Assembly (NCBI RefSeq): GCF_000308835.1
Contig: NZ_BAGN01000044.1
Location: 1-32,764, forward strand
Origin: Nocardia vinacea NBRC 16497
GTDB lineage: Bacteria; Actinomycetota; Actinomycetes; Mycobacteriales; Mycobacteriaceae
Direction of reading: 5' to 3'
Length of the DNA: 32,764 bases
Shown piece after piece: positions 2-22,938 of the stretch (position 1 is the stretch's first letter; each line of letters begins with the position of its first letter). The position numbers and the translations under genes are program-made. The notes beneath the pieces are model-generated. The model did no database searches. It was not told the origin of the DNA and saw only the letters and a program-made list of their open reading frames with translations.

Positions 2-907
2 CCGATGCCGCCGGAACCCCCGGTGCCACCGACCACGCCGACGACACCGGTACCTCCGACGACACCAGTACCTCCGACGACACCAGTACCTCCGACGACA
101 CCAGTACCTCCGACGACAGCGGTACCTCCGGCACCACCGCTGACGCCGGCGCCCCCGTTCCCCCCGACCACGCCGGAACCCCCGCAACCCCCAACGTTCC
201 CACCCCACGACCCGACGACACCCCCGCACGACCGGGTACACCCGCCGTCATCAGGCCACCCGTCGGAACCTCCGAACCGCCCGGGTACGCCCGTGCCTTC
301 GGAGCCATACGACCAGCACCACTCCGGTGCCCCACTGTCTCCCGGCTGGCCCGACGCATCCCACCAACCGATCAATCCCGTTGCACCGCAACAAGACCCG
401 ACTACTCAAACAAGTCTACCGCCGATGACACCCCCGCCCATCGGCGCACCACCGTCACCCACTCGAAACCGCCAAGGTTCCAACGGCCATCGCAACCGCC
501 CATCCCAGAACGGCAACAGCGCAACCCTTTTCGTCCAACCCTTCTCCGGCTTCGGAGTGCCCGCACACTTCGACCCGGAAACCGGTGCACTCCAAGCTGT
601 CGGCGGCGGAATCGGCCCGCAACTCGGCGTATACGGCGATCTCGGTGACACACCGGTCGTCTTCTACCGCGACCCTTCCGGCCTCGCCCTACGCGTCGGC
701 GACAACACCATCAACCTCGACACCCCCCTCGTCGCAATCGAATGGGAACCCGTAGAGAACCGCCGAACCCGCTTCGCCGTCACCGCCTCCGGCACCGTGG
801 TCTGCCAGCTCCTGTACCGCTCGCTCCCACCCGAACTCGACCTGGGCCGCCTGATCCACGACGTCTGCGCCACCCCCACCCGCCGCACCCAAATCTTCAC
901 CCGCTGA
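2..907 (+). CDS. 3' part of a Pro/Thr-repeat protein of unknown function (5' end outside window)
   Basis: The frame is open to the left edge, so this is probably the C-terminal part of a longer protein; an ATG at 5 lies in the frame but has no visible ribosome binding site. About 165 residues are dominated by Pro, Thr and Ser, beginning with a tandem TTPVPP-type hexapeptide, as in a wall-spanning or flexible linker. The last 125 or so residues look folded: they contain alternating hydrophobic stretches, a GVYGDLGDTPVVFYRDPSG segment, an IEWEP segment and two cysteines (in VVCQLL and HDVCAT). I do not recognise this C-terminal domain. The layout, a long linker followed by a compact C-terminal module, would suit a surface protein or a polymorphic-toxin tip, but nothing catalytic is visible. 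The next gene, a lipoprotein, starts about 190 bases downstream. Confidence 0.6.
   Translation, partial: PMPPEPPVPPTTPTTPVPPTTPVPPTTPVPPTTPVPPTTAVPPAPPLTPAPPFPPTTPEPPQPPTFPPHDPTTPPHDRVHPPSSGHPSEPPNRPGTPVPSEPYDQHHSGAPLSPGWPDASHQPINPVAPQQDPTTQTSLPPMTPPPIGAPPSPTRNRQGSNGHRNRPSQNGNSATLFVQPFSGFGVPAHFDPETGALQAVGGGIGPQLGVYGDLGDTPVVFYRDPSGLALRVGDNTINLDTPLVAIEWEPVENRRTRFAVTASGTVVCQLLYRSLPPELDLGRLIHDVCATPTRRTQIFTR
41..130 (+). repeat. 18-bp tandem repeat, five copies, coding
   Basis: Five consecutive 18-bp units (41-58, 59-76, 77-94, 95-112, 113-130) share the core ACGACACCAGTACCTCCG. The three central copies are identical and the outer two differ by one or two bases. In frame they encode repeated TTPVPP. 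The near-identity of the middle copies suggests recent slippage, so copy number may vary between strains. Confidence 0.9.
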
Positions 908-1927: not shown

Positions 1928-3565
1928 GTGACCACACCTGATGGCGAAGCACCCGGCGACAAGTCGAATAAAGAGCCGACCCCGAATCACGAGCAGCGCG
2001 CGGCGGTACCGGATGGCGACGCGGAGTTCATGGCCGAGTTCATGAAGGCCTTCGAGGCGGCCGACGCCAATCCCGCCGACGCCAACCTCGCTGACGCCAA
2101 CCCCGCCGAGGACGAGCAAGAAGACGAAGACGCCCCCGACATCGGCTTCGCTCTCGACGAACCGGTAGACGTCGCCGAGCAAGCCAGACAGCTCATGCGC
2201 CGGATCGCCCGCGCACTCGCCGCCGGTGGGCCACCGGGCTGGCGGCGCCTGGAGGCCGTCTTCGCGATGACCACGAGCACCGAAATCGGGTTGGTGACCT
2301 TCGTCGATGACGAGCAGCGCGAGGCGCGGGTCCAGCCTGCCGATGAGGTGGTCGAACTGGTCCGCGAACAGCGGCATCTTTCGGCCCAATTGAGCGATGG
2401 CCCCTGGTGGCGGCTGTTGATCGAGTTGGCGAACACCGGCGAGATCGAGGTCGATTACGACTATGGTGACGAGCCCTTCCCGGACGATCACCTATTCCTT
2501 CCCGAGGTCTATCTCGCGGATTTGCAGGCGTATCCGCGCGATCGATTGCCGGTTTGGCTCGCGGCCTATGTCGGCCACGGTGACCGGCAATCGCGCCCGG
2601 CGGCCGCAGCGGCCGCGCAGGCCAGGGCGGACCGGGAGACCGGTGTGCGCCCGGTGCTATCCGAGCGGGACTTTCCGGCCTTCCCGGTGATGTCGGCCCG
2701 CTGGGCGATCATCGCGGCTGCTTTCGTGGCCGCCGGATCACAGTGGGGGCCAAGGGTTTTGCCCGCGCTCGGCTGGTTCGAAGGTTCGAAACGCAGCGGG
2801 TCGACCCTGTATGCCCTGCCGGGTGGTCGCGCGGTGCTGTCCGGTGGCGTGTGGAATTCGCCCGAACTCGATGCCGTCTACAACGGCGCGACGCCGATGC
2901 CCGCACTGTATGCCGGCGCCCCGGAGTGGGTTGCCAATCCGGTGCTGAATCCGCGTGCGGCCAGCGGGTTGTTGTCGTTCTGCTATTGGTGGGACGGCGG
3001 TCGGTGGTACCGCGGCGAGTCGCCGACCGCGGACCGGCTCAGCGAAGCGGTGCCCGGCATCTGGACCTCCGATACGGTGGCCGGCGTGGTCGCGGGGTTG
3101 GTCGCGGAGCAGCCGAGCGATGGGCAGCGCGCGGCGGTGGCGAATCTGGTGTCGGCGGCGGAAATCGGTGTGGTAACCCGGGATACGCTCGTCGAGGTCT
3201 TCGGCGACGACGGCACCTTCGATATCGACAGCGCCCTCTATCAGCTCACGCTGGCCGGTGTGACGATCACCTTGCCGGAGCCGATCTCGCGTGATGCCGC
3301 GATCGCCCAGGTCCGCCAGTTCATCCTGGATCAGAACGTGGACACGACCGGCTATCCGCTGGAAAATCTGCGCGCAGACCGGATCAGCGTCGGCTGGATG
3401 GTGTACGTGCCGACCGAACCCGGTGAGATCTCGATCGGGCGCGCGATCTTCTATGTCGCCGATGACGGTGTGCTGGAACAATCTTCGTCATCGGTGGCAC
3501 CGTCGGTCTATGTCGCGGAGTTCGAGCAGCGCTTCCAGCAGCGGCACGGTTCAGTGCAGACCTAG
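1928..3565 (+). CDS. Multidomain YezG/DUF600-like and Imm35-like protein (putative immunity or ESX-linked)
   Basis: GTG 1928 is preferred over ATG 1883 because GAGGGAGA precedes it at a workable distance, giving 545 residues. After an acidic, repetitive tail (ADANPADANLADANPAEDEQ) come four regions. (1) Residues about 75-215 contain WWRLL, DYDYGDEPFP and YPRDRLPVWL, as in YezG/DUF600 immunity proteins. (2) About 255-370 hold GWFEGS, GGRAVLSGGVW, LYAGAPEWV and FCYWWDGGRWYRGES, a domain I cannot name. (3) About 380-450 is a helical segment. (4) About 457-545 contain DTTGYPLENL, GWMVYVP and a closing VYVAEFEQRF, resembling the Imm35/YrhB immunity fold. No signal peptide or membrane segment is visible, so it is probably cytosolic. 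A shorter paralogue lies at 4829. YezG proteins neutralise WXG/LXG toxins in Firmicutes; that role here is inferred from fold resemblance only. Confidence 0.65.
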   Translation: MTTPDGEAPGDKSNKEPTPNHEQRAAVPDGDAEFMAEFMKAFEAADANPADANLADANPAEDEQEDEDAPDIGFALDEPVDVAEQARQLMRRIARALAAGGPPGWRRLEAVFAMTTSTEIGLVTFVDDEQREARVQPADEVVELVREQRHLSAQLSDGPWWRLLIELANTGEIEVDYDYGDEPFPDDHLFLPEVYLADLQAYPRDRLPVWLAAYVGHGDRQSRPAAAAAAQARADRETGVRPVLSERDFPAFPVMSARWAIIAAAFVAAGSQWGPRVLPALGWFEGSKRSGSTLYALPGGRAVLSGGVWNSPELDAVYNGATPMPALYAGAPEWVANPVLNPRAASGLLSFCYWWDGGRWYRGESPTADRLSEAVPGIWTSDTVAGVVAGLVAEQPSDGQRAAVANLVSAAEIGVVTRDTLVEVFGDDGTFDIDSALYQLTLAGVTITLPEPISRDAAIAQVRQFILDQNVDTTGYPLENLRADRISVGWMVYVPTEPGEISIGRAIFYVADDGVLEQSSSSVAPSVYVAEFEQRFQQRHGSVQT

Positions 3566-4227
3566 GATCCGTCGGTGCGCCAGCGATAGCCGAAGCCGCG
3601 GATGGTGGTGATCAAGCCGGGCCGGTCGAGTTTCGCGCGCAATCCGGCCATATGCACATCAAGTGCCCGCGATACCGAGGCCGATGAGTCGCCCCAGATG
3701 CGGTCCATCAGCTCTTGCCTGCTGACGGCGGTATCGGGTCGCTCCGCCAGGATCCGAACCAGCTGGAACTCCTTGTGGGTCAGCATGATCGGCACCCCGG
3801 CCACCTGGACCTGCCGGGCTATCAGATCGACCCGAACATCCTGGGAGACAACCGCTTCCACGGGCGAGGTGTGGATCACGACGCGACGGGTGACCGTCTC
3901 CAGCCGCGCGACCAGCTCCGCGATGCGCGGCGGTTTCACCAGGTAGTCGTCCGCGCCGGAGCGCAGCGCGAGCACCACGGTGCGCTCACCGGCCCGTGCG
4001 GTGAGGATCAGTACGGGTACCGAGCTGACTGCACGCAGCCGCCGCAACACCTCCAACCCGTCCATATCCGGTAGTCCGAGATCGAGGATCACCGCGTCGT
4101 AGTCGCGGTGGGTACGTAGTAGGTCTGCGCCGCGCCGCTTGCGGTCGACGAGATAGCCGCGAGCGGCGAGCGCGGCCTGCAGCGCTTCCCCGACTCCGTC
4201 ATCGTCTTCCACCAGCACAAGCCGCAC
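3562..4227 (-). CDS. OmpR/PhoB-family response regulator
   Basis: The start is GTG 4227, with GAGGATC about nine bases before it; the longer open frame upstream has no receiver homology. The 221-residue product has the normal family length. The receiver domain (1-115) shows acidic Glu-Asp-Asp-Asp near residue 7, the phosphoacceptor Asp in VILDLGLPDMDG and the conserved Lys in LVKPP. The winged-helix DNA-binding domain (about 125-220) shows LTHKEFQLVRILAE, SRQELMDRIWGD, VSRALDVHMAGLRAKL and the wing signature TTIRGFGYRW. It should act as a phosphorylation-dependent transcription factor. No histidine kinase is encoded beside it, so within this window it is an orphan. Its last four bases overlap the 3' end of the convergent gene 1928-3565 at a shared CTAG. 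Its targets are unknown. Confidence 0.9.
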   Translation of the reverse strand: MRLVLVEDDDGVGEALQAALAARGYLVDRKRRGADLLRTHRDYDAVILDLGLPDMDGLEVLRRLRAVSSVPVLILTARAGERTVVLALRSGADDYLVKPPRIAELVARLETVTRRVVIHTSPVEAVVSQDVRVDLIARQVQVAGVPIMLTHKEFQLVRILAERPDTAVSRQELMDRIWGDSSASVSRALDVHMAGLRAKLDRPGLITTIRGFGYRWRTDGS

Positions 4228-4828: not shown

Positions 4829-6100
4829 GTGAATCAAGCATCGCGTAGCGATTCCGTGGGGGGTGGTGGTCGAGCGACGGGCGACGGACGGATCGGCGGC
4901 CCGAGTACCGCAGTCGCCGACTCCGCCGGCCGGTACGCCGACACATTGGTCTCGCGCATCGCGAGCGAGTTGGGGGAACTCGGCCCACTCGGTTGGCAGC
5001 GTCTCAACGCGGTATTCGCATTGACCGTGACCGTCGAGTCGGCGCGCGTCGAGTTCACCGGTGCGCATCGGCCGGTACGCCTGGAAGTGCCGGAGTCGGT
5101 GGTCGCGCTGGTGCGGCAGTATCGTGCCGAGATCGCCGCATCCGGCACCGAGCCGTGGTGGCGACTGTTGTTGCGGGCCAACGTATACGGTGACATCGAG
5201 GTCGATTACGACTACGGCGACGAGCCGTTCCCCGCCGATCAACTCTTTCGCCCGGAGGCGTATCGCGCCGATGTGGCGGCGTATCCGCGGCCGCGACTGC
5301 CGGTGTGGTTGGCGGCCTACATGAATCACCGTGACCGGCAGTGTCGCCGCCCGCGCCGCGCCGTGGCCGCCGCCCTCGTCGGCCGGGCGCACGGGGTGAC
5401 CGCGCGGCCGGTGGATCCGGAATTTCCGTCGTTTCCGCAGTTGTGGGCACGATGGGCGATGATTTCGGCGGCACACGTTGCCGTTTCGTCCGACCGCGGC
5501 CCCCGGGTCGTGCCGTCGAACGGCTGGTTCGAAAGCGGCGGGAACGGTAGCAGCGGCTCCACGCTGTACGCCGTGCCGGGCGGCCGAGCCGTGCTCTCGG
5601 GCGGAGTATGGGACGCACCGGCATTGAACGCGGCTTATAACGGCGGCGTCGATCTGCCGAATCTCTATGCGGGAGCGCCGGATTGGGTGACGAACTCGGT
5701 GCTGAGTCCGCGTGCGGCCGTCGGGTTGCTCTCGTTCTGCTTCTGGTGGGACGGTCAGCGGTGGTATTGTGGGGAGTCGCCCTCGGTGCAGCAGTGTGGT
5801 GTGGCAATGCCGCAAATCTGGCAGTCGCACACCGTGATCGAGACGGTGGCCCGGTTACTGTCGGGGGATCCGGGCACCCGAACACGAACCGCGGTGGCGC
5901 GCTTGCTGACCGCCGCAGAGCGCGGGGAGGTCACCCGAGAGCTGTTGGTGGACGCCTTCGGTCGCGACGGCGATCTCGAAGCCGCGACCCGTCAGCTGTC
6001 GGCGGCCGAGTTGCTCGCGCCGCGGTCGAATCGAGTCCATGCGATGGGAGTTCACCACTTGGACGGCAAACGTCCATGCGATGATCGAATTGTGCTATAG
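4829..6100 (+). CDS. Second YezG/DUF600-like paralogue, lacking the C-terminal Imm35-like domain
   Basis: GTG 4829 follows GGAACGAGA. The 423-residue product aligns along most of its length with the protein at 1928-3565. Shared blocks include GPLGWQRLNAVFALT, WWRLLL, IEVDYDYGDEPFP, RPRLPVWLAAY, GWFESG, GGRAVLSGGVWDAP, LYAGAPDWV and FCFWWDGQRWYCGES, then a helical segment. The two differ at the ends: this copy lacks the acidic repeat tail, and after RQLSAAELLAPR the sequence diverges into about 28 unrelated residues, where the paralogue continues into an Imm35-like domain. No remnant of that domain is readable in any frame up to 6350, so the loss looks like a deletion or replacement rather than a single recent frameshift. 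Function is unknown; the immunity reading rests on resemblance of the N-terminal domain to YezG. Confidence 0.65.
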   Translation: MNQASRSDSVGGGGRATGDGRIGGPSTAVADSAGRYADTLVSRIASELGELGPLGWQRLNAVFALTVTVESARVEFTGAHRPVRLEVPESVVALVRQYRAEIAASGTEPWWRLLLRANVYGDIEVDYDYGDEPFPADQLFRPEAYRADVAAYPRPRLPVWLAAYMNHRDRQCRRPRRAVAAALVGRAHGVTARPVDPEFPSFPQLWARWAMISAAHVAVSSDRGPRVVPSNGWFESGGNGSSGSTLYAVPGGRAVLSGGVWDAPALNAAYNGGVDLPNLYAGAPDWVTNSVLSPRAAVGLLSFCFWWDGQRWYCGESPSVQQCGVAMPQIWQSHTVIETVARLLSGDPGTRTRTAVARLLTAAERGEVTRELLVDAFGRDGDLEAATRQLSAAELLAPRSNRVHAMGVHHLDGKRPCDDRIVL

Positions 6101-8947: not shown

Positions 8948-8959
8948 AAGGTGGCCGCC

Positions 8960-9301: not shown

Positions 9302-9329
9302 CTCCCGTTGTCCGAGAGGAGTTTTCATC

Positions 9330-9629
9330 GTGTACGAGACCATGGACGAACTGATGGCCGGCGTGCAGCGACGGCTGTATCGGATCCGGGATCTGACCGA
9401 CGATATGGCCGGAGTGCGCGGTCGGGAGACGGCGCAGGACGGTTCGATCACCGTGGCGGTCGACGGCAACGGAACATTGCTGGATCTGCAATTCTCCCAG
9501 GCTGTTTCGCGGATGACACCGGCGGAATTCGAGTCGACGCTGGTAGCGACCGCGGCTGCCGCGGTGCGGCAGGCATTCGAGCGACGTAGCGAATTGGTCA
9601 CTGCCTTCAACGAGGAAGTCGCCGAGTAG
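9330..9629 (+). CDS. YbaB/EbfC-family protein
   Basis: GTG 9330 follows GAGAGGAG at good spacing; 99 residues, the usual family size. The core is two strands (DGSITVAVDGNGTLLDLQF) followed by a long C-terminal helix (TPAEFESTLVATAAAAVRQAFERRSELV), with an N-terminal helix in front, as in the YbaB/EbfC DNA-binding fold. ESX loci of mycobacteria carry similar genes (for example espL). Housekeeping YbaB lies next to dnaX and recR; neither is here, which supports an ESX-specific role. It may form dimers, possibly with the preceding EspH-like protein. This is the last gene of the first substrate operon; 128 bases separate it from the EspC-family gene. Confidence 0.75.
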   Translation: MYETMDELMAGVQRRLYRIRDLTDDMAGVRGRETAQDGSITVAVDGNGTLLDLQFSQAVSRMTPAEFESTLVATAAAAVRQAFERRSELVTAFNEEVAE

Positions 9630-9757
9630 ACACCCGACGTTCACGCTGTCCCCGTAGAACTTTTGTCAAGAACCTTAAGTTTTGCTTTCAGGCTTTGCGG
9701 TTTGATCGATGGGTTCTATGAAGAGTCGTCAGTTCCATTACGGGATGGGGGATCACG

Positions 9758-10069: not shown

Positions 10070-10071
10070 CA

Positions 10072-11352: not shown

Positions 11353-11377
11353 GGGGTCGTTGATTCAGGAGGTTGCG

Positions 11378-11710: not shown

Positions 11711-11739
11711 CACCACAGCGAATACGACACGGAGCCACC

Positions 11740-12720
11740 ATGATCGAACCACCGCAGCCCGGTTTCACCGGTGTGGTCTGGGGCGCCCGCGAGCCGGATC
11801 GGCTGGCGCGTGAACTGTCCACCGGTCCCGGCGCGGTACCGATGGCCGAGGCCGGTGCGGCGTGGACCCGGCTGGCCGCCGGATTCGGCACGGCGGTCGC
11901 CGAATACGAACTGATCGTCGCGTCCATACGCGGTGCGTGGCAATCCACCACGAGCGGCCCGGTGCTGGACCGGATTTCGCGGTTGCGCGATTGGCTCGCC
12001 GATGCCGCGACCGCCGCGGGCAATAATGCGGTGCGCGCCGAAACCCAAGCCGCCGCTCATGAATTGGCACGGCTGACCATGCCGCATACCGCCGAGATCC
12101 AGGCCATCCAGACGGTGCAGCGGATGCTCGAATCGATCGGCGGGGCGCTCGGCGCACCGCTCGAGGCGGTGGCCGCCCAGGCCGATACCGACGCCGATAT
12201 GGCGAAGGCGGCGGCCGCGCGGGTGATGCAGACCTATGAGGCGGCGACCGAACCGCTCGCGACACCGTGGATTCAGCAGGAGCCGCCCGTGATCGCCTCA
12301 TCCGCGGCGCTGGCGGCCGAGGAGGCGAGTGCGCCGGTGGCGGCCGCGACATCGGCCATGCCCGCGCTGCCCGCGATTACGCCGGGCATGTTCATGGCGG
12401 GCGGAATCGGTGCGATCCCGATGCCCGCGAAGCTGCAGCCGTATCGGGCACCGGTCTTCACCGAAGCTCCGGCGCCGGTGGAACTGACTACGCCACAACC
12501 GGTTCCGACCGCAACGGCGAGTTCGAGTGCGCTGCCGATGGTTCCCGGCGCGATGGCGGCAGGCGCCGGTGCGGAGGAAGAGGAGTACGCCCCGCGCGCG
12601 GCGGCGGTGACCGGCGACGCCATCGGTGCCGATCTCGGTATCGCCGCCGCCCCGGCGGTACTCGGCGCTCCGGAAGCACCTGCGGCCACCGGTCGGACGG
12701 CATCGGGAGGTGCCGAATGA
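11740..12720 (+). CDS. PPE-family protein
   Basis: ATG 11740 follows GGAG six bases upstream; 326 residues. The N-terminus reads PPQPGFTGVVWGAREPDRLA, with the PP...W opening of the PPE domain, and continues through a helical region to about 175 (SIRGAWQSTTSGP, then MPHTAEIQAIQTVQRMLESIGG). The usual WxG turn reads Trp-Gln-Ser here. The C-terminal half is Pro/Ala/Gly-rich low complexity with an acidic stretch (GAEEEEYAPRAAA). It should pair with the PE protein encoded just upstream and be bound at its tip by the EspG encoded just downstream, which overlaps its stop by four bases. Destination: export through this ESX system to the cell surface or medium. Confidence 0.75.
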   Translation: MIEPPQPGFTGVVWGAREPDRLARELSTGPGAVPMAEAGAAWTRLAAGFGTAVAEYELIVASIRGAWQSTTSGPVLDRISRLRDWLADAATAAGNNAVRAETQAAAHELARLTMPHTAEIQAIQTVQRMLESIGGALGAPLEAVAAQADTDADMAKAAAARVMQTYEAATEPLATPWIQQEPPVIASSAALAAEEASAPVAAATSAMPALPAITPGMFMAGGIGAIPMPAKLQPYRAPVFTEAPAPVELTTPQPVPTATASSSALPMVPGAMAAGAGAEEEEYAPRAAAVTGDAIGADLGIAAAPAVLGAPEAPAATGRTASGGAE

Positions 12721-13559
12721 CGACCATGACCAATGACGGCCTGCTCGCGGTGGCCGAGCGACTCGGTGTCCAGACCTTGCCGCTCGTGCTTTCCGTTGGA
12801 CCGCAACAGGATTCGTTCGACGCGTGGACCGAGGCGCAGCAACGCGCGGTGACCGAACTGGTCGGCGCGGGCGTGCTCGACGCCGAGGGCGATATCGACT
12901 CCGAACTGGCCGATGCCATGTGCACACTGGCTCAACCCGATCGCGAGTTGGTCGCCCGCATCTACGCGACCGGGCCCGACGGAACGCCGGCCGTGACCCG
13001 GATCTGCCTGGCCCGCCGCGGCGAACAGCATGCCATCGCGGTGCGCACCGGCGACACCTTCGACGTGCGGACCGTCTGGGCGGACGGGTCGGGCGAGGCG
13101 TTGGTGCGCCCGCTGCTCGCGGCGCTCGGAGCCGGAACACCGGCGGAGGTGGTCAATTTCAGCGCGCCGTCGAGCGAATTGAGCGAGCGGCTCACCGCTG
13201 GCGAATGCTTGCAGGTCGCTCGAAACAACACTGCGGCACAGACCTCCGAGGATTACGCGGACGCCGTCTACGCACTGGGCGTCGCCGATCGTGACGCCAC
13301 TGCTTACGGGCTGGCGTTCGCCTCCTGCCATGCCTTCGCCGAGATCGTGGCCTACGCCCATCTCGACGGTAGGACCACCCGGCCGCCCGGTGCGGTCGCG
13401 GTCTATGACACCGGACGCGGTCGCATTGTGGCCGCGCCCGGGATTGCTGCGGATCAGCAGGTCTGGTCCACGGTGACACCGGGCACCGATCACCGTATCG
13501 CACAAGCGATTTCGGCACTGATCGAATCATTGCCCGGGGGAAGGTGGCTTCCGCAGTAA
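12717..13559 (+). CDS. espG: EspG-family ESX chaperone (second copy, next to PE/PPE)
   Basis: ATG 12717 overlaps the PPE stop (ATGA) and has GGGAGG six bases upstream; 280 residues, normal for EspG. Family-like features are an N-terminal domain with LLAVAERLGVQTLPLVLSVG, the AQQRAVTELVGAGVLDAEGD helix, strands around PDRELVARIYA and ITRICLAR-like text (VTRICLARRGEQHAIAV), and a C-terminal helix ISALIESLPGG. This opening differs from that of the EspG at 8162, which begins with the FTDLEF motif, so the two belong to different EspG subgroups. Being directly behind PE and PPE, it is the obvious chaperone for that pair. Confidence 0.75.
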   Translation: MTTMTNDGLLAVAERLGVQTLPLVLSVGPQQDSFDAWTEAQQRAVTELVGAGVLDAEGDIDSELADAMCTLAQPDRELVARIYATGPDGTPAVTRICLARRGEQHAIAVRTGDTFDVRTVWADGSGEALVRPLLAALGAGTPAEVVNFSAPSSELSERLTAGECLQVARNNTAAQTSEDYADAVYALGVADRDATAYGLAFASCHAFAEIVAYAHLDGRTTRPPGAVAVYDTGRGRIVAAPGIAADQQVWSTVTPGTDHRIAQAISALIESLPGGRWLPQ

Positions 13560-13568
13560 ACCTTCCGG

Positions 13569-14331: not shown

Positions 14332-16125
14332 TTACCGTGCCGCGGCGAGGGATTCGCCGATGTACCACATCTCGTCCGGGGTGGTGACCATATTGACCGT
14401 CGCGCTGGCGGTCGAGGTTCGCACCGTGATCAGGTTGGGAGCCGAAATATCCTGCACCAGAACGATATCGGCATCGAACTGCGCATCGGGCTGCTCAGGC
14501 GCGCGGACATGCACGATGGTCGCGCCACCGGTCAGCGCGGTTGGGGCGATCCCGTCGAAGACCACCACGGTCGCGGTGGGAATGGGCCCGCCGGGCTGCG
14601 GTGCGGCGACGTGATGCCCCGCACCGGCGAATCGAGGTGCCAGCGAGAGCGAATGCGGCGCACCGATATTCGCGACCATGGACTGCCAGGCCTCGGGCCG
14701 GTCGGTGTGCACGATGGTGTGCGCGCCGAGGGCGATGGCCCGCAGGATCACCTGCTGTGCCAGATCCAATCGGCCGATCACCTCGAGATGTCTGGTGCCG
14801 TCACCGATCAGCGGCACCGCGATGCCCTGGCCGGCATTGTCGGCGCCGATCAGCTGACCGCAACCGGCGGTCGGCACGACGATGCCGTCGAGCGCGGCGA
14901 GCGGACCGCGGTAGTCACCGGCGTTGTCGCCGTCGCGACGAGCAGTGCGGGCGGGCAGGCAATCCAGCAGTGCGCGGAATTGCTGACCCGGCAGGGTGCG
15001 CAGGCCGGGCACCGGCGGCTCGACCGGTTCGGCCGCGGTGTCGAAGCGGACCAGCGCGCCCAGCGTGATCGGCGGGGAACCGGGTTCGCGTCCGTCGCCG
15101 GGCCGCTGCGCACCGGGTCGCAGTCGCACGGTGACCGTCGTGGTCAGGCTCGGGGTGGCCCAGATATCGGCGAAGCCGCGCGACCCGATCAACTCCGGGC
15201 CGATCTCGTAACTGGTGAGGTACAGGCCTTGGTGCACCAGCGATTTCGGGGTTTCGATGAATCCGTCCAGTGCGATACCGCGGGTGAGTTGGCGCGCCGC
15301 GCTGTTCATCTCGCCCGCGGTGAGCACCGACACCGAGATGTCACGACCGGCGAGTCGATTGGCCACCCGGCGGGTCGCGATGATCGCGGTTCGCAGCGCC
15401 CCCGCACCGCCCCCGCCACGGTTGTCCACGGCCTCGGCATTGGCGAGCGGATCCAGCCGCAGCACCAGCCAGACCGTGCGATGCGCGATGGCGGGCAGTG
15501 GGCCGAGGATGCGGTCGTAGAGCTGGGCCACCGGTCCGCCGCCTGCGGTCCGGGCGCCGGTGCTGATCACATCGATCGAGGCCAGGTTGATATCGAATTG
15601 ACTGAGGCAGCGGCCGATTTCGGTGAGCGGAAGCACCTGGTCGGTGGACAGCGAACCGCGCCGCAACAGCGTCAGCGCATCCGGCGGCGGATCGATGCGC
15701 AGCATGGTGAGCAGCAGATTGCCGTCCCAGCGCACGCCGTAACTGCCGCCCTCGGGCAGCGGCACATCGAAGGCCGCCTGGCCGGCATCGGCGGGGCCGG
15801 GCCGGGTCCGCCGCCAGCGAAAGGCGATCGTGCGCGCCAGCATGCCCACGATATTGCGTGGCTCGCGCCGACGCACCGGTACCGCGCCGACAATGAGCAC
15901 GACCGCGGCGACCGCGATGACGGCGACCGTCGGCGCCTGCAGCGCCGTTGCGATCCAGGCCGCGATCGCGGCAATCAGCGCGAGCGGAATCATGAGTCGC
16001 AAAGGCATTTGACGCAGCAGCCAGAATTCCGGATCACGTAACGTTGTGTTCGTCGCGTTCACGGAGTTTTCGTTTCCGGTTAATTCACGCGCGTTCGCTC
16101 CGGAGTCGGTATCGCGTTTGTTCAC
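14332..16125 (-). CDS. eccE: ESX membrane-complex protein EccE
   Basis: Two membrane segments lie near the N-terminus (about 43-62 and 66-84), followed by a large soluble domain. GSYGVRWDGNLLLTMLRIDP and later HQGLYLTSYEIGPELIGSRG are typical EccE text. EccE sits at the periphery of the EccBCDE inner-membrane complex and contacts MycP in mycobacterial ESX structures. I favour GTG 16125 (597 residues), which has a GGGGACGGGG stretch just upstream; ATG 16182 in the same frame (616 residues) has no Shine-Dalgarno and would lie close to the repeat array. The gene is reversed relative to its usual co-directional place at the end of ESX operons and is divergent from eccB across that array. Confidence 0.85.
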   Translation of the reverse strand: MNKRDTDSGANARELTGNENSVNATNTTLRDPEFWLLRQMPLRLMIPLALIAAIAAWIATALQAPTVAVIAVAAVVLIVGAVPVRRREPRNIVGMLARTIAFRWRRTRPGPADAGQAAFDVPLPEGGSYGVRWDGNLLLTMLRIDPPPDALTLLRRGSLSTDQVLPLTEIGRCLSQFDINLASIDVISTGARTAGGGPVAQLYDRILGPLPAIAHRTVWLVLRLDPLANAEAVDNRGGGGAGALRTAIIATRRVANRLAGRDISVSVLTAGEMNSAARQLTRGIALDGFIETPKSLVHQGLYLTSYEIGPELIGSRGFADIWATPSLTTTVTVRLRPGAQRPGDGREPGSPPITLGALVRFDTAAEPVEPPVPGLRTLPGQQFRALLDCLPARTARRDGDNAGDYRGPLAALDGIVVPTAGCGQLIGADNAGQGIAVPLIGDGTRHLEVIGRLDLAQQVILRAIALGAHTIVHTDRPEAWQSMVANIGAPHSLSLAPRFAGAGHHVAAPQPGGPIPTATVVVFDGIAPTALTGGATIVHVRAPEQPDAQFDADIVLVQDISAPNLITVRTSTASATVNMVTTPDEMWYIGESLAAAR

Positions 16126-16196
16126 AGCCCCGTCCCCGATAATCAGACCAGTATTGCGATAACAGTACCGCGCCACACCCATGTTCGGGGCTGACC

Positions 16197-16330
16197 TTTT
16201 CGAGCGACCTGCAAGCAGTCGCTACGGCCCTTTTCGAGCGACCTGCAAGCAGTCGCTACGGCCCTTTTCGAGCGACCTGCAAGCAGTCGCTACGGCCCTT
16301 TCGAGCGACCTGCAAGCACTCGCTACGACG
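16197..16330. repeat. Four tandem 34-bp repeats, each with an imperfect palindrome
   Basis: Units at 16197-16230, 16231-16264 and 16265-16298 are identical; the fourth (16299-16330) has lost one T, carries a G-to-C change and diverges at its end. Each unit begins TTTTCGAGCGACCTGC and contains AGCGAC...GTCGCT flanking CTGCAAGCA, an imperfect 21-bp dyad. The array lies between divergent eccE and eccB, so a role as a multi-copy regulator site is plausible, but a non-functional slippage expansion cannot be excluded. Confidence 0.9.
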
Positions 16331-16357
16331 AGAATAGTTTGCCCAATTGTCGCTGGA

Positions 16358-16385
16358 TTGACACCGCGGCACCGAACGATACTGT
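16358..16385 (+). promoter_or_regulatory. Candidate promoter of eccB
   Basis: TTGACA (16358-16363) and TACTGT (16380-16385) are separated by 16 bases. The first is a perfect sigma-70 -35 box and the second fits the actinobacterial TANNNT -10 pattern. Transcription would start near 16392, about 30 bases before the eccB start. Confidence 0.55.
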
Positions 16386-16423
16386 AATTATCCTGTTCGT
16401 TCCCGTAGTTCGATGGAGACCAT

Positions 16424-17929
16424 GTGCCGGCTCAGCTGACCACCAAGGCCCAGGTCAACGGCTACCGTTTTCTGCTGCGCCGACTCGATCACGCGCTGGT
16501 TCGACGCGATGTGCGGATGCTGCACGACCCCATGCGATCTCAGCTGCGTTCGATGCTCGTCGGCGCCACCCTCGGCCTGCTGGTGGTGGCCGGCGCGGCC
16601 ATCCTGGCCTTCCTGCGGCCACAGGGCGCGATCGGCGACGCGAATATCGTGATCGGCAAGGACAGCGGTGCGCTGTATGTGGTGGTGGCCGAATCCGAGG
16701 ACAAGAAGGACGACAAACGCCTGCATCCGGTGCTCAACCTGGCCTCCGCCCGGCTGATCAGCGGCAGCAACGAATCGCCCAAATCGGTGAAGGATTCGAA
16801 GCTTTCGTCGATGCCGCGCGGTCCGATGCTCGGCATCCCGGGTGCGCCCGCGGCCCTGCCCGGTTCGACGCAGGGCGGTCGTTCGGACTGGTCGCTGTGC
16901 GAAACGGTGCAGCTCTCGATCACCGGCAGCGCGGCCGCGGCGACCGGCGTGGAAACCGCGGTTTTCGCGGGCAAACCCCAACTGGACGAACGCATTCGGA
17001 CCCTGGGGCCATCGGATGCGCTGCTGGTGCGGCGGGCCGATAAGACCTATCTGATCTACGACGGCAAGCGCGCGGAAGTCGATCCCGGCAACTCGGTGCT
17101 GGCTCGTGCGCTGAACCTGACCGGGCACAAGCCGCGGCCGGTCGGCACCGGGCTGCTGGATGCCGCCATCGCGGTGCCGCCGCTGGCCGTGCCGGATATT
17201 CCGAAGGCCGGACAGCCCGGTCCGGCAAAGCTTTCCGATGTGCCGATCGGCGGGGTCATCGTGGTCGGCGGCACCGGGCGCACCGATCAGTCCCAGCTGT
17301 ATGTGGTGCTCGCCGACGGTGTGCAGCCGGTCACCGATTTCGCCGCGCAGGTCATCCGCACCGCGAATTCCCAGGGCATGCGCGAGATCAAGGCGGAACC
17401 GCCGGACGTGCTGACCAATATGCCGGTACTACACCAGCTTTCCCTCGACCACTTCCCGGCGACCACTCCGAAGATCGTCTCCGCCGAGGATGCTCCGGTC
17501 ACCTGCCTGAGCTGGGCAAAGGGGCCCGAACCAGGCAACGACGCGACCGAAAGCCCCACCGACCGCGCCGCTATCACCCTGCTCGCGGGCAACCGTCTGC
17601 CGCTGCCGGGTTCGGCTGAACCGGTGAGTTTGGCCACCTCCGACGGCACCGGCGATCGGGTCGATTCCGCCTACATCCCACCGGCTTCGGGGGAGTTCGT
17701 GCAGGTAACCGGAACGGAGCCGGGCAGTTTGCGGCGCGGTGGCCTGTTCTATGTGGCGGACAACGGAATCCGCTACGGCATCCCGGATATCGCCACCGCC
17801 CAGGTGCTCGGCCTCGGCAGCGAACCGCGCCTGGCCCCCTGGTCGATCATCGGTCAGCTGGTGCCCGGTCCGACGCTGTCGAAGAACGACGCGCTGGTCA
17901 AGCATGATATCTTGCCCGTCGGAAACTGA
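16424..17929 (+). CDS. eccB: ESX membrane-complex protein EccB
   Basis: GTG 16424 has GGAG about eight bases upstream; 501 residues. The opening PAQLTTKAQVNGYRFLLRRLDHALVRRDVRM is the canonical cytosolic start of EccB, followed by one membrane helix (about 43-65) and a long extracytoplasmic domain made of R-repeats. The two cysteines expected to form the conserved disulfide are near residues 157 (WSLCETV) and 360 (PVTCLSW). EccB caps the periplasmic side of the ESX pore. The gene ends five bases from the convergent eccA stop, leaving no room for a terminator. Confidence 0.95.
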   Translation: MPAQLTTKAQVNGYRFLLRRLDHALVRRDVRMLHDPMRSQLRSMLVGATLGLLVVAGAAILAFLRPQGAIGDANIVIGKDSGALYVVVAESEDKKDDKRLHPVLNLASARLISGSNESPKSVKDSKLSSMPRGPMLGIPGAPAALPGSTQGGRSDWSLCETVQLSITGSAAAATGVETAVFAGKPQLDERIRTLGPSDALLVRRADKTYLIYDGKRAEVDPGNSVLARALNLTGHKPRPVGTGLLDAAIAVPPLAVPDIPKAGQPGPAKLSDVPIGGVIVVGGTGRTDQSQLYVVLADGVQPVTDFAAQVIRTANSQGMREIKAEPPDVLTNMPVLHQLSLDHFPATTPKIVSAEDAPVTCLSWAKGPEPGNDATESPTDRAAITLLAGNRLPLPGSAEPVSLATSDGTGDRVDSAYIPPASGEFVQVTGTEPGSLRRGGLFYVADNGIRYGIPDIATAQVLGLGSEPRLAPWSIIGQLVPGPTLSKNDALVKHDILPVGN

Positions 17930-17934
17930 GACTT

Positions 17935-19755
17935 TCAGACGCCCAGCGAAGCCAGTACACCGGTGAGCGCGGCCTGCATATCTGGCGCTTCGATGCGCAT
18001 GAGCACCATCTCGTCCACCGCGCTCAGATCCAGCGATTCGTCATTGGCCAGTCGGAATTCGCGTTCCTCCTCGGCGGATTCGATGATGTTGCGCACGAAT
18101 CGACCGTTGCCCGCGAGGTCGATGCCCCGACGTGGCTGTCCGCTCTGATCGACCCGCTCGGTCTCATACAGCCGCCCGCACGCCTCGATCAGCAGTTCCA
18201 TTGCCCCCTCGGACAACTCGGAATCGCGGGAACGGGCGATCAGGCTGCCGATCTGCCCGAGTTCGGTCGGAGTGTAGGACGGGAACTGCAGGCGTTTGGC
18301 GAAACGTGAAGCCAGACCGTCGTTCGCGGCGAGCAGCCGGTCGATCTCGCCGTCGTATCCCGCGATGATGACCACCAGCCGGTCGCGGTCGTTTTCCATC
18401 CTGGCCAGCAGCGTATCCACCGCCTCGCGGCCGAACGCGTCACCGCCCTGCAGACCGGTCTGGATCAGCGTGTATGCCTCGTCGATGAACAGCACACCGT
18501 CCATCGCGGTATCGATCAGCTTGTCGGTCTTGATCGCGGTGCCGCCGAGGTTCTGGCTGACGAAGTCCACGCGTTTGGCCTCGACGACCTTATCGGTCTT
18601 GAGAAGCCCCACGCCGCAATAGATTTTGGCCACCACCCGGGCGATGGTGGTCTTACCGGTGCCGGGGGGTCCGGTGAAGGCCAGGTGGTTGCCGCGGGCC
18701 ATGCTGGCCATACCCTTCTCGGCCCGGATCTTGGCCAGCTGCGCGGTTGCCTGCAACTTCGCGACCTGCGTTTTCACCGATTCGAGGCCGATCTGCTTAT
18801 CCAACTCGGCGCGCGCGTCGGCCAGGATCTTCTTGGCACGGTCCTCGGCGTCGGCGGTCTGCATCGCCTCCACCGAGGGCGCCGACGCCGGATCCCAGCG
18901 GTCGGTGCGCGCGTCGATCGACTCCTTGGTGGTCACCGTGAGCCGGTAGGTGCGATCGCGCATGGCTGCGGTATTGGCGGCGAAATCCGGTGCCTGCGAA
19001 TACACCTTCTCGAAAAGGGCCTGCGCCTCGGCCTCTTTACCGGTCTCGCGCAGGCACAGGCCACGGCAGAACATGGCGGTGGTCCGGGCCGCCGGGATCG
19101 GGCCCGCTTCGGCCTGTTCCATGCGTCGGATGGCCTCGCCGAACAGGCCGAGCTGGGCGCATGCCGAGCCGACCATCACATGTGCGCCCGCCGCCAGATA
19201 CGGGTCGTCCCATTCGGCGGATCCGGCGAGCACGGCCATCACATCGGGCCAGCGCTGGGTGTTGAAGTGCAGTACGCCACGGATATACGCGCAGATCCGG
19301 TCGTCGATCTCCCGATCGGTATCCGAGAGCATCGAGGCGCGGTGCGTGGCGAGTTCGTCGAGCACCTGTTCGGCCTCGTCGTACTCCTTCTCGGAAATCA
19401 GCTGTGCCGCTTGGGCCAGCCAGATTTCGGTGTAGCCGGCCAGCGGGTAGTCGATGTACAGCCCGGCCAGGAAGCGTCCGGCCAATGCGCGCGGTGCCAG
19501 CCCCAACCGGCGCTGCTCGCGGAAAAGTGTTGTCCCACTGTTCTTGTAGAGGTTGTAGAGCACCTCGGTGGTGACCTCACCCGCCGCGGCCCGGCCCAGC
19601 CAGGCGTCGCACATCGTCGGGTCCCACTCGGTGGCACGCTGAAAAGCCAGTTTCGCGTACTCGAGATCGCGAGCCGATTCCTGCCCGTCGATGGTCAGGC
19701 CCAGCGACAGGATTCCGGCGTCGAAGGCCCGTTGTGCTTGGCGGTTGCCGGTCAT
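17935..19755 (-). CDS. eccA: Cytosolic AAA+ ATPase EccA
   Basis: I prefer ATG 19755 (MTGNRQAQRAF, 606 residues) because the known EccA N-terminus begins at about this point; ATG 19818 would add 21 residues. The N-terminal half is a TPR-like helical domain (CDAWLGRAAAGEVTTEVLYN and onward). The C-terminal CbbX-type AAA+ domain shows Walker A GPPGTGKTTIARV near residue 362, Walker B GVLFIDEAYTL near 420, sensor VVIIAGYDG and an arginine finger SRFAKRLQF. EccA is a hexamerising cytosolic ATPase thought to detach EspG chaperones from PE/PPE substrates. It is on the strand opposite eccB and eccD. Confidence 0.93.
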   Translation of the reverse strand: MTGNRQAQRAFDAGILSLGLTIDGQESARDLEYAKLAFQRATEWDPTMCDAWLGRAAAGEVTTEVLYNLYKNSGTTLFREQRRLGLAPRALAGRFLAGLYIDYPLAGYTEIWLAQAAQLISEKEYDEAEQVLDELATHRASMLSDTDREIDDRICAYIRGVLHFNTQRWPDVMAVLAGSAEWDDPYLAAGAHVMVGSACAQLGLFGEAIRRMEQAEAGPIPAARTTAMFCRGLCLRETGKEAEAQALFEKVYSQAPDFAANTAAMRDRTYRLTVTTKESIDARTDRWDPASAPSVEAMQTADAEDRAKKILADARAELDKQIGLESVKTQVAKLQATAQLAKIRAEKGMASMARGNHLAFTGPPGTGKTTIARVVAKIYCGVGLLKTDKVVEAKRVDFVSQNLGGTAIKTDKLIDTAMDGVLFIDEAYTLIQTGLQGGDAFGREAVDTLLARMENDRDRLVVIIAGYDGEIDRLLAANDGLASRFAKRLQFPSYTPTELGQIGSLIARSRDSELSEGAMELLIEACGRLYETERVDQSGQPRRGIDLAGNGRFVRNIIESAEEEREFRLANDESLDLSAVDEMVLMRIEAPDMQAALTGVLASLGV

Positions 19756-19861
19756 TGCTGCAAACCCCGAAGTGTTGGTTGGAGCTATCTTTATTGTTGC
19801 GCGATTGTCCGCGTACATCTTCCGACCAGCTTAGCGATCGCGTCGGCTCGGCTCGTCCGAT

Positions 19862-19891
19862 ACATTATGTTTTGCCACTGATAGGTTGCAA
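19862..19891 (-). promoter_or_regulatory. Candidate promoter of eccA
   Basis: On the minus strand TTGCAA (19891-19886) and TAATGT (19867-19862) are 18 bases apart, fitting a weak -35 and an actinobacterial TANNNT -10. It lies in the 269-base gap between the divergent eccA and eccD, which otherwise holds no ORF. Confidence 0.3.
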
Positions 19892-20024
19892 AGTGTGCGA
19901 CGACCACATGCGACGGGGGAACGTTCGTGCGAGAGTGGATCCGAGTCGTAGAGTTGGTTCGACAGGTAGGAAACCGGGCGCAAGTGTTTGGATCGTTCCG
20001 TAAAGAGCCGGGGTCGGTGCGCAA

Positions 20025-21500
20025 TTGACCGAACCATTGAGCAGCGGCACCCGTGCCGCCGAACCCGAACTGTGCCGCGTATCCGTCATCGGGGGAAATA
20101 CCCAGCTCGATGTCGGGCTTCCGGCGACCGTGCCTATCGCCACATTTATCGGTGATCTCGTCGCCCTGATCGAATCGCGCAATCCCGATGTCGTGGAGAG
20201 CGACGACGGCGGCACCCCACTGCATACCGAACACTGGACCCTGGCCCGGCTGGGCCGTGACGCCATCGCGCCGAGCCGCAGCCTCACCGAGGCCGAGGTG
20301 TTCGACGGTGAACTGCTGGTGCTGCGCTCGGTCACCGCGAAGGAATCGCCCGCGCTCTTCGACGATGTCATCGATGCGGTATCCCGGCTCACCAGTGTCG
20401 ATTTCCGCAGCTGGTCGCCCACTGCGGCCCGTTGGACCGGTCTGGTCGCCGCGGTGTCGGCGGTGCTGCTCGCGCTGCTGCTGCTCGCCGCTGGGCGTGC
20501 GCACGGCGATGGTCTGGCTGCGCCGTTCCTCGCGACCGGCGTCGCTGTCATCGCCGCAGTTGCTGCGGGCATCGCGGCGCGTAAGTACGCGGATCAATTG
20601 ACGGCTGCCTGGTTGTCACTGTGTGCGCTGCTGTTGTTCTTCGGCGGCGCGGCACTATTCGTGCCAGGCGATCTCGGCAGTCCGCATCTGCTGCTCGGCT
20701 GTTCGGTCACCCTGGTGGCCGCGGCTGTGATCTATCGCGCCACCGCGACCGGTGCCGCGCTCGCCGCGTCCGCGGTGACCGTCGCGCTGTTCGGCGGATT
20801 CGCCGCACTCGTGCGAATGATCTGGGATTTCGACCTACCCAAAATTTCCGCCGCCATCCTGGTGGTGGCCATCACACTGATCTCCGCGGTGCCGCGGCTG
20901 GCGGCGGTGCTGGCCAGGCTGCCGATCCCGCCGGTGCCGACCGCGGGTGGCGCGATCGATCCGGCCGATCACGAACCACGCCCCACCATCGAAGGCATCG
21001 GCGCGATCGGCGCGACGGCACTGCCCTCGGCCGCCGGACTCGGCGAGCGGGCCAGGGCGGCCAACCAATACCAGACCGGCATGCTCATCGCCTGCGCCAT
21101 TGCCGCGGTTGTCGGTGCGCTCGGCGCCGCCGATCCGCTGGGATCCGCACGCTGGCAAGGGATTACGCTTGCCATCATCGCAGCGGCGATCATCGGTCTG
21201 CGCGGCCGTTCCTTCGCCGACCTGGTGCAGGCCGGTGCGCTGATCGCGGGCGGCTGCGTCATCGGCATCGGTCTGATCACCGGATTGGCCCTCGGCGATT
21301 CGGATCTGCTGCTGCTCGCGGGTGTGCTGCTGCTGGCCTTCGCCGCGGGGGTGCTGGTGTTCGGAGTGATCGGTCCGCACCTCGAGGTGACGCCGGTGAC
21401 CCGCCGAGCCATGGAGATCACTGAATATCTGCTGATCGTGGCGGTGATCCCGCTGGTGCTGTGGATCATGGGAGTGTATTCGATGGCCAGGAACATATGA
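20025..21500 (+). CDS. eccD: ESX membrane channel protein EccD
   Basis: TTG 20025 is the first usable start: an in-frame TAA lies at 20001 and no ATG or GTG intervenes. The 491-residue product has a ubiquitin-like N-terminal domain (about 15-105, CRVSVIGGNTQLDVGLPATVPI), a short linker and then a series of about eleven hydrophobic helices up to the C-terminus. EccD dimers build the large membrane vestibule of the ESX complex. The stop overlaps the mycP start by four bases, making eccD-mycP-eccC one operon. The start codon and weak Shine-Dalgarno could limit translation of the first gene. Confidence 0.93.
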   Translation: MTEPLSSGTRAAEPELCRVSVIGGNTQLDVGLPATVPIATFIGDLVALIESRNPDVVESDDGGTPLHTEHWTLARLGRDAIAPSRSLTEAEVFDGELLVLRSVTAKESPALFDDVIDAVSRLTSVDFRSWSPTAARWTGLVAAVSAVLLALLLLAAGRAHGDGLAAPFLATGVAVIAAVAAGIAARKYADQLTAAWLSLCALLLFFGGAALFVPGDLGSPHLLLGCSVTLVAAAVIYRATATGAALAASAVTVALFGGFAALVRMIWDFDLPKISAAILVVAITLISAVPRLAAVLARLPIPPVPTAGGAIDPADHEPRPTIEGIGAIGATALPSAAGLGERARAANQYQTGMLIACAIAAVVGALGAADPLGSARWQGITLAIIAAAIIGLRGRSFADLVQAGALIAGGCVIGIGLITGLALGDSDLLLLAGVLLLAFAAGVLVFGVIGPHLEVTPVTRRAMEITEYLLIVAVIPLVLWIMGVYSMARNI

Positions 21501-22930
21501 CTGCTCGGGCGCGCGAGCCCGGCTGGCGGCGTGGAACCGGAATCTGCTGTGCTGCAGCAGTTCTCGGTGCATCGCTGCTCGGTTGGTCTGCTCCGGCCGG
21601 TGCGGTCCCGCCACCCACTATCGACCCGGGCGCACTCGGGCCCGCGCAGGTGCTCAGCGGTCGGCCCGCACCCTTGGAGCCGACCGAGCAGAAGGTCGTC
21701 TGCGCCGAACTGTCGCTCATCGGTGGTCCGCTCGCGGAGCCGCCGCTGCCGCAGCGTGTGCTCGATCTGCCCGCGGCTTGGCAATTCAGTCGCGGTGCGG
21801 GACAAAAGGTTGCGGTCATCGATACCGGCGTGAATCGGCATCCGCGACTGCCGGCACTGCAAGCCGGCGGCGACTATGTCTCGGACTCCGACGGCACCGT
21901 CGACTGCGACGGCCACGGCACGCTCGTCGCCGGCATTATCGCCGCGCGCCCGAGCCCGGACGATGCCTTCGTCGGTGTCGCGCCCGATGCCGAGATCCTC
22001 ACCATCCGCCAGTTGAGCACGCACTATGAGCGCAAGGATCGCGCGGGCGGCGATCAGCCGCGGGATGCCATGGTGCCTTCCGGTTACGGCAGTGTGCTCG
22101 GCTTGGCCGCCTCGGTGGTGCGCGCCGTCGATATGGGTGCCACGGTTATCAATATTTCCGAAGTCTCTTGCAGCGCAGCGGGAACCGACACTGCCGACGT
22201 TCCGCTCGGTGCCGCGGTGAAGTACGCCTACGACCACAACGTCGTGGTAATCGCTGCAGCGGGCAATGTGGAGAACGGCGGCGCATGCGAGAAGCAGAAC
22301 GACGGTGACGGCTGGAACAGCGTGCAGACCATCGCCAGTCCCGCGTGGTTCCAGCCCTACGTCCTGACCGTGGCCTCCATCGATCCGAACGGCTCACCCT
22401 CGGCGCTGTCGCTGCACGGGCCGTGGGTCGGCGCCGCCGCCATCGGGCGCAATATCGTCTCGCTCGACAATAAGCCGGGCGGCACCGGACTGGTCAACGG
22501 CGCGATCACCCAGGAGGGCACCGGAACCATCCAGGGCACCAGTTTCGCCGCACCCTATGTCGCCGGACTCGCCGCACTGGTCCGGTCCCGGTTCCCGGAA
22601 CTCACTGCCGGACAGGTCATCGATCGAATCACCCGAACCGCACAAGCGCCCGGTCCGGGCCACGACGATCGGGTCGGCCACGGTCTGATCGATCCGCTGG
22701 CCGCGCTCACCGCGCAACTCCCGGATAAACCGGTGAGTGTCGGCGCCGACACGCCACGTGTTATGGCGCCCCCGGTACATCCGGCGGGCCCCGATCCGCT
22801 GCCGCGACGCATCGCGATCATCGGCTCGGTCAGCTGTCTGATCGTGCTGGGACTCGGTGCGGCGCTGTCGATTCCGTTCCGGCGCGCTCGTGGTTCCGCC
22901 GATCTCGAGTCCGAAGTAACAGAGCAGTAG
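21497..22930 (+). CDS. mycP: Mycosin subtilisin-like protease MycP
   Basis: ATG 21497 overlaps the eccD stop and is preceded by CCAGGAAC. The 477-residue product has an N-terminal signal peptide (Arg-rich n-region, apolar core about 15-36). The S8 peptidase domain shows the catalytic triad Asp109 (VAVIDTGVN), His140 (DGHGTLVAG) and Ser349 (GTSFAAPYVAG), plus oxyanion Asn257 (AAAGNVENGG). A C-terminal membrane helix (IAIIGSVSCLIVLGLG) is followed by a short basic tail, as in all mycosins. It is anchored with the protease facing the periplasm, where mycosins stabilise the ESX complex independently of proteolysis and cleave some substrates. All active-site residues are present. Confidence 0.96.
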   Translation: MTARAREPGWRRGTGICCAAAVLGASLLGWSAPAGAVPPPTIDPGALGPAQVLSGRPAPLEPTEQKVVCAELSLIGGPLAEPPLPQRVLDLPAAWQFSRGAGQKVAVIDTGVNRHPRLPALQAGGDYVSDSDGTVDCDGHGTLVAGIIAARPSPDDAFVGVAPDAEILTIRQLSTHYERKDRAGGDQPRDAMVPSGYGSVLGLAASVVRAVDMGATVINISEVSCSAAGTDTADVPLGAAVKYAYDHNVVVIAAAGNVENGGACEKQNDGDGWNSVQTIASPAWFQPYVLTVASIDPNGSPSALSLHGPWVGAAAIGRNIVSLDNKPGGTGLVNGAITQEGTGTIQGTSFAAPYVAGLAALVRSRFPELTAGQVIDRITRTAQAPGPGHDDRVGHGLIDPLAALTAQLPDKPVSVGADTPRVMAPPVHPAGPDPLPRRIAIIGSVSCLIVLGLGAALSIPFRRARGSADLESEVTEQ

Positions 22931-22938
22931 AGGGACCC

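What the first reader, a model, noticed from the sequence alone, without database searches (positions are those of the whole stretch)
1928..3565. Fusion of two immunity-like folds (YezG-like and Imm35-like) around an unnamed central domain
The protein joins a YezG/DUF600-like domain (WWRLL, DYDYGDEPFP, YPRDRLPVWL) to an unrecognised central domain (GGRAVLSGGVW, WWDGGRWYRGES) and ends in an Imm35/YrhB-like domain. Polyimmunity fusions like this protect against several toxins. YezG partners WXG/LXG toxins, and the gene lies next to a full ESX locus. This may be an undescribed ESX-linked toxin-immunity arrangement in actinobacteria.
Basis: partly seen in the sequence, partly recalled or inferred. 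Interest (0 to 1): 0.7.

Follow-up and report, generated by a model that had tools for sequence, protein, structure and literature searches.

The report
EsaG-like partner of giant Nocardia effectors
This gene, whose relatives occur in 146 of 148 sampled Nocardia genomes, is predicted to encode an antitoxin-like domain joined to domains of unassigned fold; its relatives usually lie beside enormous genes that probably encode secreted effectors, and it likely binds such an effector before export rather than protecting against several toxins.

The parts
5..907 (+). 3' end (about 300 codons) of a giant effector-like gene that runs off the left end of the contig
   Evidence: Frame open to the contig edge. 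The syntenic G120 gene has the same C-terminus and a 6,874-codon frame headed by WXG100_2.
557..907 (+). Conserved, unnamed C-terminal domain (about 115 aa) of that giant
   Evidence: 17 copies in 15 of 19 genomes; upstream of this family in 48 of 70 named loci; no Pfam match at E<=1
1928..3565 (+). F1, the protein of the finding (545 aa): disordered acidic N-terminus 1-79, D1 YezG-like 80-215, linker, D2 250-378, helical D3 379-446, D4 447-545
2165..2572 (+). D1, YezG/EsaG-like fold (residues 80-215; structural match spans 80-187)
2675..3061 (+). D2, central domain (residues 250-378), best conserved part; also a standalone protein in Streptomyces/Kitasatospora
   Evidence: 55 of 129 columns >=95% conserved; 300 relatives of similar length at E<=0.01, 120 listed
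3266..3562 (+). D4, C-terminal domain (residues 447-545), not detectably Imm35; absent from the second window copy
3562..4218 (-). Response-regulator-like gene between the two copies (named by reading, no profile run)
   Evidence: Cluster c4, 7 members,
4829..6100 (+). F2, paralogue (423 aa) with D1-D2-D3 but no D4; 54% identical over 362 aa
8162..8947 (+). EspG-family chaperone gene
   Evidence: PF14011 E 1.1e-22
9330..9629 (+). YbaB/EbfC-like gene, same cluster as the YbaB-like gene of the effector modules
   Evidence: PF02575 E 6.6e-8; cluster c2
11740..12720 (+). PPE protein
   Evidence: PF00823 E 1.7e-26
12717..13559 (+). second EspG-family gene
   Evidence: PF14011 E 9.7e-55 for 12267-13559; start
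14332..26988 (.). ESX machinery: EccE (14332-16182 -), EccB (16424-17929 +), EccA (17935-19818 -), EccD (20025-21500 +), subtilase MycP (21461-22930 +), EccC (22939-26988 +)

Best explanation
This protein belongs to a Nocardia-wide family that lies beside giant WXG100_2-headed genes and likely acts as an EsaG-like partner that would bind the giant effector in the cytosol, in this window probably through the effector's conserved C-terminal domain, and hold it harmless and export-ready until the ESX type VII system takes it up. Shown: the EsaG-like fold of D1 in a predicted model, the gene order in both settings, the size of the neighbouring frames, the constancy of this protein where effector tips change, and the conserved C-terminal domain upstream. 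Inferred: that it binds the effector; that D1 does so with the strand EsaG uses against EsaD (EsaG 110-114, here 173-177); that it stays behind at export. Untested: binding, secretion dependence, antitoxin activity.
For: Linkage: 47 of 69 copies in 19 single-contig genomes lie within 6 kb of a PF25547 (WXG100_2) frame (150 of 179 matches were listed), against a mean of 1.8 and maximum 7 in 1000 random placements. Of the other 22, 14 have a same-strand frame of >=2,000 codons within 6 kb (heads of these frames not profile-tested). Size: linked frames median 6,630 codons (n=44), unlinked 836 (n=106), p 5e-12. Setting 1, gene then WXG100-like, YbaB-like, giant: 13 of the 20 loci (my count); nearest frame downstream on the same strand in 22 of 47 linked copies. 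Setting 2, gene after a giant's 3' end: 19 of 47; 48 of 70 named loci with >=3 kb upstream have the conserved C-terminal domain within 6 kb. All 17 copies of that domain in 19 genomes belong to giants next to this family, 14 with the gene downstream, 3 with it upstream of the giant's head (my reading). Co-variation with that domain r 0.81 (n=55); 0.63-0.77 after allowing for three other locus genes one at a time. Constancy: 18 unrelated tips in 20 setting-1 giants against 53% mean identity. EsaG's toxin-pairing strand is kept, with G171, D178, G180, D181, P183 invariant in 68. EsaG binds its effector's C-terminal domain, splits its sheet and is stripped off at export (PMC9616950, passages).
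Against: No binding data. Most copies (55 of 69, my reading) do not follow the conserved C-terminal domain, so that pairing cannot be the whole story. Setting-1 correlations (YbaB-like r 0.62, WXG-like 0.75, head 0.59) are weaker than those of the three delivery genes among themselves (0.82-0.89), and all such values include species relatedness: other ESX-locus genes correlate with this protein at 0.65-0.88. In named loci the YbaB-like gene correlates with it at only 0.42. 7 of 69 copies have neither a listed WXG100_2 frame within 6 kb nor a same-strand frame that is >=2,000 codons or cut by the locus end. 10 of 106 unlinked WXG100_2 frames are >=5,000 codons. 6 of 47 linked copies lie opposite their nearest frame. 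EspG genes in the same locus could serve as chaperones. The EsaG match by sequence is weak (E 0.14, behind an unrelated enolase-family entry at 0.033). D2-D4 gave no Foldseek hit at E<=0.001.
Confidence: 0.45

Rival explanations
1. Plain immunity: the conserved C-terminal domain of the upstream giant is a toxin and this protein is its antitoxin, with no role in export.
For: Antitoxin fold; gene directly downstream of the effector's last domain, as usual for immunity genes; co-variation r 0.81 with that domain, partly kept after controls.
Against: The domain is conserved across the genus (mean identity 47%, n=55), unlike a polymorphic toxin tip; 55 of 69 copies do not follow it (my reading); copies head modules whose tips are unrelated. 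No Pfam family is matched.
Confidence: 0.25
2. General export chaperone of the effector's delivery head or of the small WXG100-like/YbaB-like partners, independent of the C-terminal domain.
For: The nearest frame is downstream in 22 of 47 linked cases; 63 of 79 named loci have the YbaB-like gene downstream; the head is the part most widely shared among 21 giant pieces, up to 13 other pieces against 7 for the best other window.
Against: In named loci it tracks the upstream C-terminal domain (0.83) more than the downstream YbaB-like gene (0.41, same 45 loci). Some large WXG100_2 frames have no copy within 6 kb.
Confidence: 0.15
3. One reading: a polyimmunity protein whose domains each neutralise a different toxin.
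For: D1, D2 and D4 occur alone or in other combinations elsewhere.
Against: Only D1 has a recognised immunity fold; Imm35 fails. Constant across 18 unrelated tips. 14 of 69 copies lack D4, and 13 of those 14 still lie within 6 kb of a WXG100_2 frame.
Confidence: 0.07

Closest known systems
EsaG / YezG (PF04634, DUF600) antitoxins of T7SSb nucleases
   Different: Below the Pfam cut-off; fused to D2-D3-D4; no D-x-G-H motif in 21 giant pieces (pieces, not whole genes); the conserved C-terminal domain matches no Pfam family
EspG / EsaE / EspK T7SS substrate chaperones
   Same: Would bind substrate in the cytosol and be encoded beside it
   Different: No EspG-family match; true EspG genes lie in the same window. 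Functions of EspG, EsaE and EspK from PMC11217815 (passages)
Polymorphic toxins with WXG100-type heads (Zhang et al. 2012, PMC3482391, passages)
   Same: WXG100_2 head, RHS repeats, ADP-ribosyltransferase and other payloads, variable tips in setting 1
   Different: Frames reach tens of thousands of codons; most setting-2 giants end in one conserved domain
Imm35 (PF15567, YrhB)
   Same: Rough helix-strands-helix order of D4
   Different: No profile match in 68 homologues; 0.2% profile-profile probability

Membership tests
YezG-like (PF04634, DUF600) | YezG/EsaG fold | tested here: met
YezG-like (PF04634, DUF600) | Score above Pfam's gathering cut-off | tested here: not met
   14.1 bits against 21.7; 63 of 68 homologues match at E<=1, best 1.5e-4
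YezG-like (PF04634, DUF600) | Cognate EsaD/YeeF-type nuclease next door | tested here: inconclusive
   No D-x-G-H motif in 21 giant pieces: a motif from recall, and pieces rather than whole genes
YezG-like (PF04634, DUF600) | Neutralises the toxin | not testable with these tools
   Needs co-expression
Imm35 (PF15567) | Profile match | tested here: not met
   None of 68 at E<=1; 0 matches in the whole genome at E<=0.001
Imm35 (PF15567) | Imm35 fold | tested here: inconclusive
   (0.2% with 8 sequences, one doubtful)
Polyimmunity protein | Two or more recognised immunity domains in one chain | tested here: inconclusive
   One recognised fold; D2 and D4 unassigned
Polyimmunity protein | Changes with the toxin tips it meets | tested here: not met
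   Setting 1: 18 tip groups in 20 giants, mean identity 53%. In setting 2 it does track one conserved C-terminal domain
T7SS substrate chaperone (EspG/EsaE) | EspG-family profile | tested here: not met
   No PF14011 match in the protein or 68 homologues
T7SS substrate chaperone (functional sense) | Encoded beside the substrate genus-wide | tested here: met
T7SS substrate chaperone (functional sense) | Binds substrate, needed for export, stays behind | not testable with these tools
   Needs pull-down and secretome data

The most novel reading that the evidence does not exclude
Nocardia export single-chain effectors of thousands to about 40,800 residues through ESX systems, and this family is their dedicated holding factor, in which an antitoxin that works by splitting its client's beta-sheet (the EsaG mechanism) has been turned into a genus-wide export factor.
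Probability: 0.28. Interest if true: 0.88.

Novelty: new variant of a known kind. Interest (0 to 1): 0.62.

Why it matters
The T7SS chaperones described in the passages I saw (PMC11217815) are EspG-type or EspK. A further, antitoxin-derived class tied to giant effectors would help explain how very long proteins are kept safe and export-ready, and would link antitoxins to export factors. The family is nearly universal in the sampled Nocardia genomes, none of the 120 listed homologues carries a precomputed Pfam domain, and it marks loci with unusually long effector genes and a conserved unnamed C-terminal domain that can be tested directly.

Tried and rejected

A recount gives 22 frames downstream, 19 upstream and 6 opposite among 47, and analysis of the upstream giants revealed their conserved C-terminal domain. 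I therefore moved the claim from a pure head chaperone (0.5) to an EsaG-like effector partner (0.45) and raised plain immunity from 0.22 to 0.25.

Papers: one search listed 1 paper, 28 two, 50 and 65 none, 66 one, one listed 20 of 55, one listed 15 of 63; none of the listed titles or abstract starts concerned this family or giant Nocardia T7SS effectors. The library lacks most subscription journals.

Rows dropped: of 82 rows I used 69 and left out 13 short matches; of 179 PF25547 matches 150 were listed and used. In one search, 18 of 21 YbaB-like, 9 of 21 WXG-like and 20 of 21 heads passed my filters; effector tips were read for 20 of 21 pairs, one of which (G043) may shift frame near its end. 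One search kept 80 of 259 loci. Only 9 candidates per genome were scored, so copy numbers there are lower bounds.

Full report
Observation. The ORF at 1928-3565 (+) encodes 545 aa and contains every quoted motif. Its window paralogue at 4829-6100 is 54% identical over 362 aa and ends before the C-terminal domain. The window is a whole contig of 32,764 bases of a 10.15-Mb genome with further copies on contigs C10 and C7 and a C-terminal-domain-only match on C13. The genus is Nocardia: the best relatives are Nocardia proteins (93% identity), and a same-genus contig (G009:C341, 7,467 bases) has the size and match of NZ_BDBY01000341.1 of Nocardia pseudovaccinii.

Modularity. Outside Nocardia the domains come apart: D1 alone, D2 alone, D4 alone, D1 with D4 but no D2 (L096-L098), and D4 placed before D1-D2-D3 (L107). 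In L103 a standalone D1 lies next to a small DAGHLIA-motif nuclease, as expected of an ordinary EsaG-type pair.

Distribution. 146 of 148 Nocardia genomes match at E<=0.001. Across the family 48 of 251 genomes match, 21 of them Nocardia; 20 of the other 27 match only by separate domains (my reading). Across the class it is 18 of 296.

Linkage to giants. In 19 single-contig genomes 47 of 69 copies lie within 6 kb of a WXG100_2 frame, against 1.8 expected from random placement, maximum 7 in 1000. Of the remaining 22, 14 have a same-strand frame of >=2,000 codons within 6 kb, one more has one of 1,745 codons cut by the locus end, and three of the other seven have one of 1,278-1,973. Linked frames have a median of 6,630 codons (n=44) against 836 unlinked (n=106). 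These are stop-to-stop lengths, not annotated genes, and the distance rule favours long frames slightly. The longest, 40,807 codons in G051, is open in four 20-kb samples with GC3 0.78-0.85 and 52-143 stops in each other frame, its stop lying in the last sample. Payloads differ: ADP-ribosyltransferase, RelA/SpoT, sigma and anti-sigma domains, LuxR-type arrays, GDPD, alpha/beta hydrolases, PP2C, RHS repeats.

Setting 1. In 22 of 47 linked copies the nearest frame is downstream on the same strand. The typical order is this gene, a WXG100-like gene of about 105 aa, a YbaB-like gene of about 165 aa, the giant; 63 of 79 named loci have the YbaB-like gene downstream within 6 kb. Among 20 such giants the last 260 residues form 18 groups without a BLASTP match at E<=1e-3, while this protein keeps 53% mean and 44% minimum identity in 21 loci. 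Distances correlate with the YbaB-like gene (0.62, n=18), the WXG-like gene (0.75, n=9) and the head (0.59, n=20), less than those three with each other (0.82-0.89).

Setting 2, the window's. In 19 of 47 linked copies the nearest frame lies upstream on the same strand. In named loci 48 of 70 with >=3 kb upstream have one conserved domain of about 115 aa within 6 kb upstream; 41 of 46 upstream tips of named loci fall in one cluster. In the window it is encoded at 557-907. In 19 genomes it has 17 copies, all at the end of giants next to this family: 14 with this gene downstream within 5 kb, 3 with it upstream of the giant (my reading). It matches no Pfam family. Its distances correlate with this protein at 0.81 (n=55); in the same 45 loci 0.83, against 0.41 for the YbaB-like gene. 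As a control for shared descent, three other ESX-locus genes correlate with this protein at 0.65-0.88; with each held constant the correlation with the C-terminal domain stays at 0.63-0.77.

Function. The two settings together fit a partner of the giants rather than an antitoxin for changing tips. In setting 2 the geometry is that of EsaG: an antitoxin-fold protein encoded after the effector whose C-terminal domain it may bind. EsaG splits its client's sheet and is stripped off at export (PMC9616950, passages), so neutralising and holding may be one act. Why the family also heads modules with unrelated tips is not explained by that pairing; binding to a shared part such as the head is possible. 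Known T7SS chaperones are EspG-type or EspK (PMC11217815, passages); this protein shows no EspG match.

Limits. No binding or secretion was tested. In the window neither copy is followed by the module trio; F1 follows the giant's end with a lipoprotein-like gene between, F2 precedes other ESX genes. In G134 the equivalent of F2 does head a module, so the window may be a reduced arrangement; which state is older was not tested.

Noticed in passing
G051:C1, about 1939688-2062104 (-), sampled in L121, L168, L167, L122: A single open frame of about 40,800 codons headed by WXG100_2 next to a copy of this family; two further WXG100_2 frames of 10,828 and 15,942 codons lie beyond its end. Frames of 33,513 (G089) and 28,643 (G088) codons also occur.
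   Followed up: partly
557-907; 17 copies in 15 of 19 genomes: A conserved, unnamed C-terminal domain of giant effector-like proteins at Nocardia ESX loci.
   Followed up: partly
L111:1111-10839, L115:2853-11300, L116:3458-8932: WXG100_2-headed giants carry regulatory and housekeeping-type domains: HATPase/Sigma70 region 2/zf-HC2, LuxR and sigma region 4 arrays, RelA/SpoT.
   Followed up: partly
8162-26988: The window's ESX locus has EccA, two EspG and a PPE protein, although a 2024 paper (PMC11217815, passage) states that ESX-4 is the only T7SS in non-mycobacterial actinobacteria such as Nocardia.
   Followed up: no
1102-1755: Lipoprotein-like gene with an HNH-like stretch (by reading) between the giant's end and F1; no gene was called in the matching interval of the syntenic G120 locus.
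   Followed up: no
3562-4218: Divergent response-regulator-like gene between the two copies; homologues in six other loci, five of them between two copies.
   Followed up: no
L089-L092: Central domain as a gene of its own in Streptomyces-type genomes; I noticed no T7SS gene among the called neighbours in these four loci.
   Followed up: partly
L096:8180-9727, L097:8250-9818, L098:7306-8826: Genes in two other genera of the family joining D1 and D4, without D2, to a further C-terminal region of about 250 aa.
   Followed up: no
L103:8547-9346: Standalone YezG-like gene beside a small DAGHLIA-motif nuclease gene in another actinobacterium.
   Followed up: no
L051, L052 (G088) and L160 (G043): Some giant genes look interrupted or change frame; described only.
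   Followed up: no
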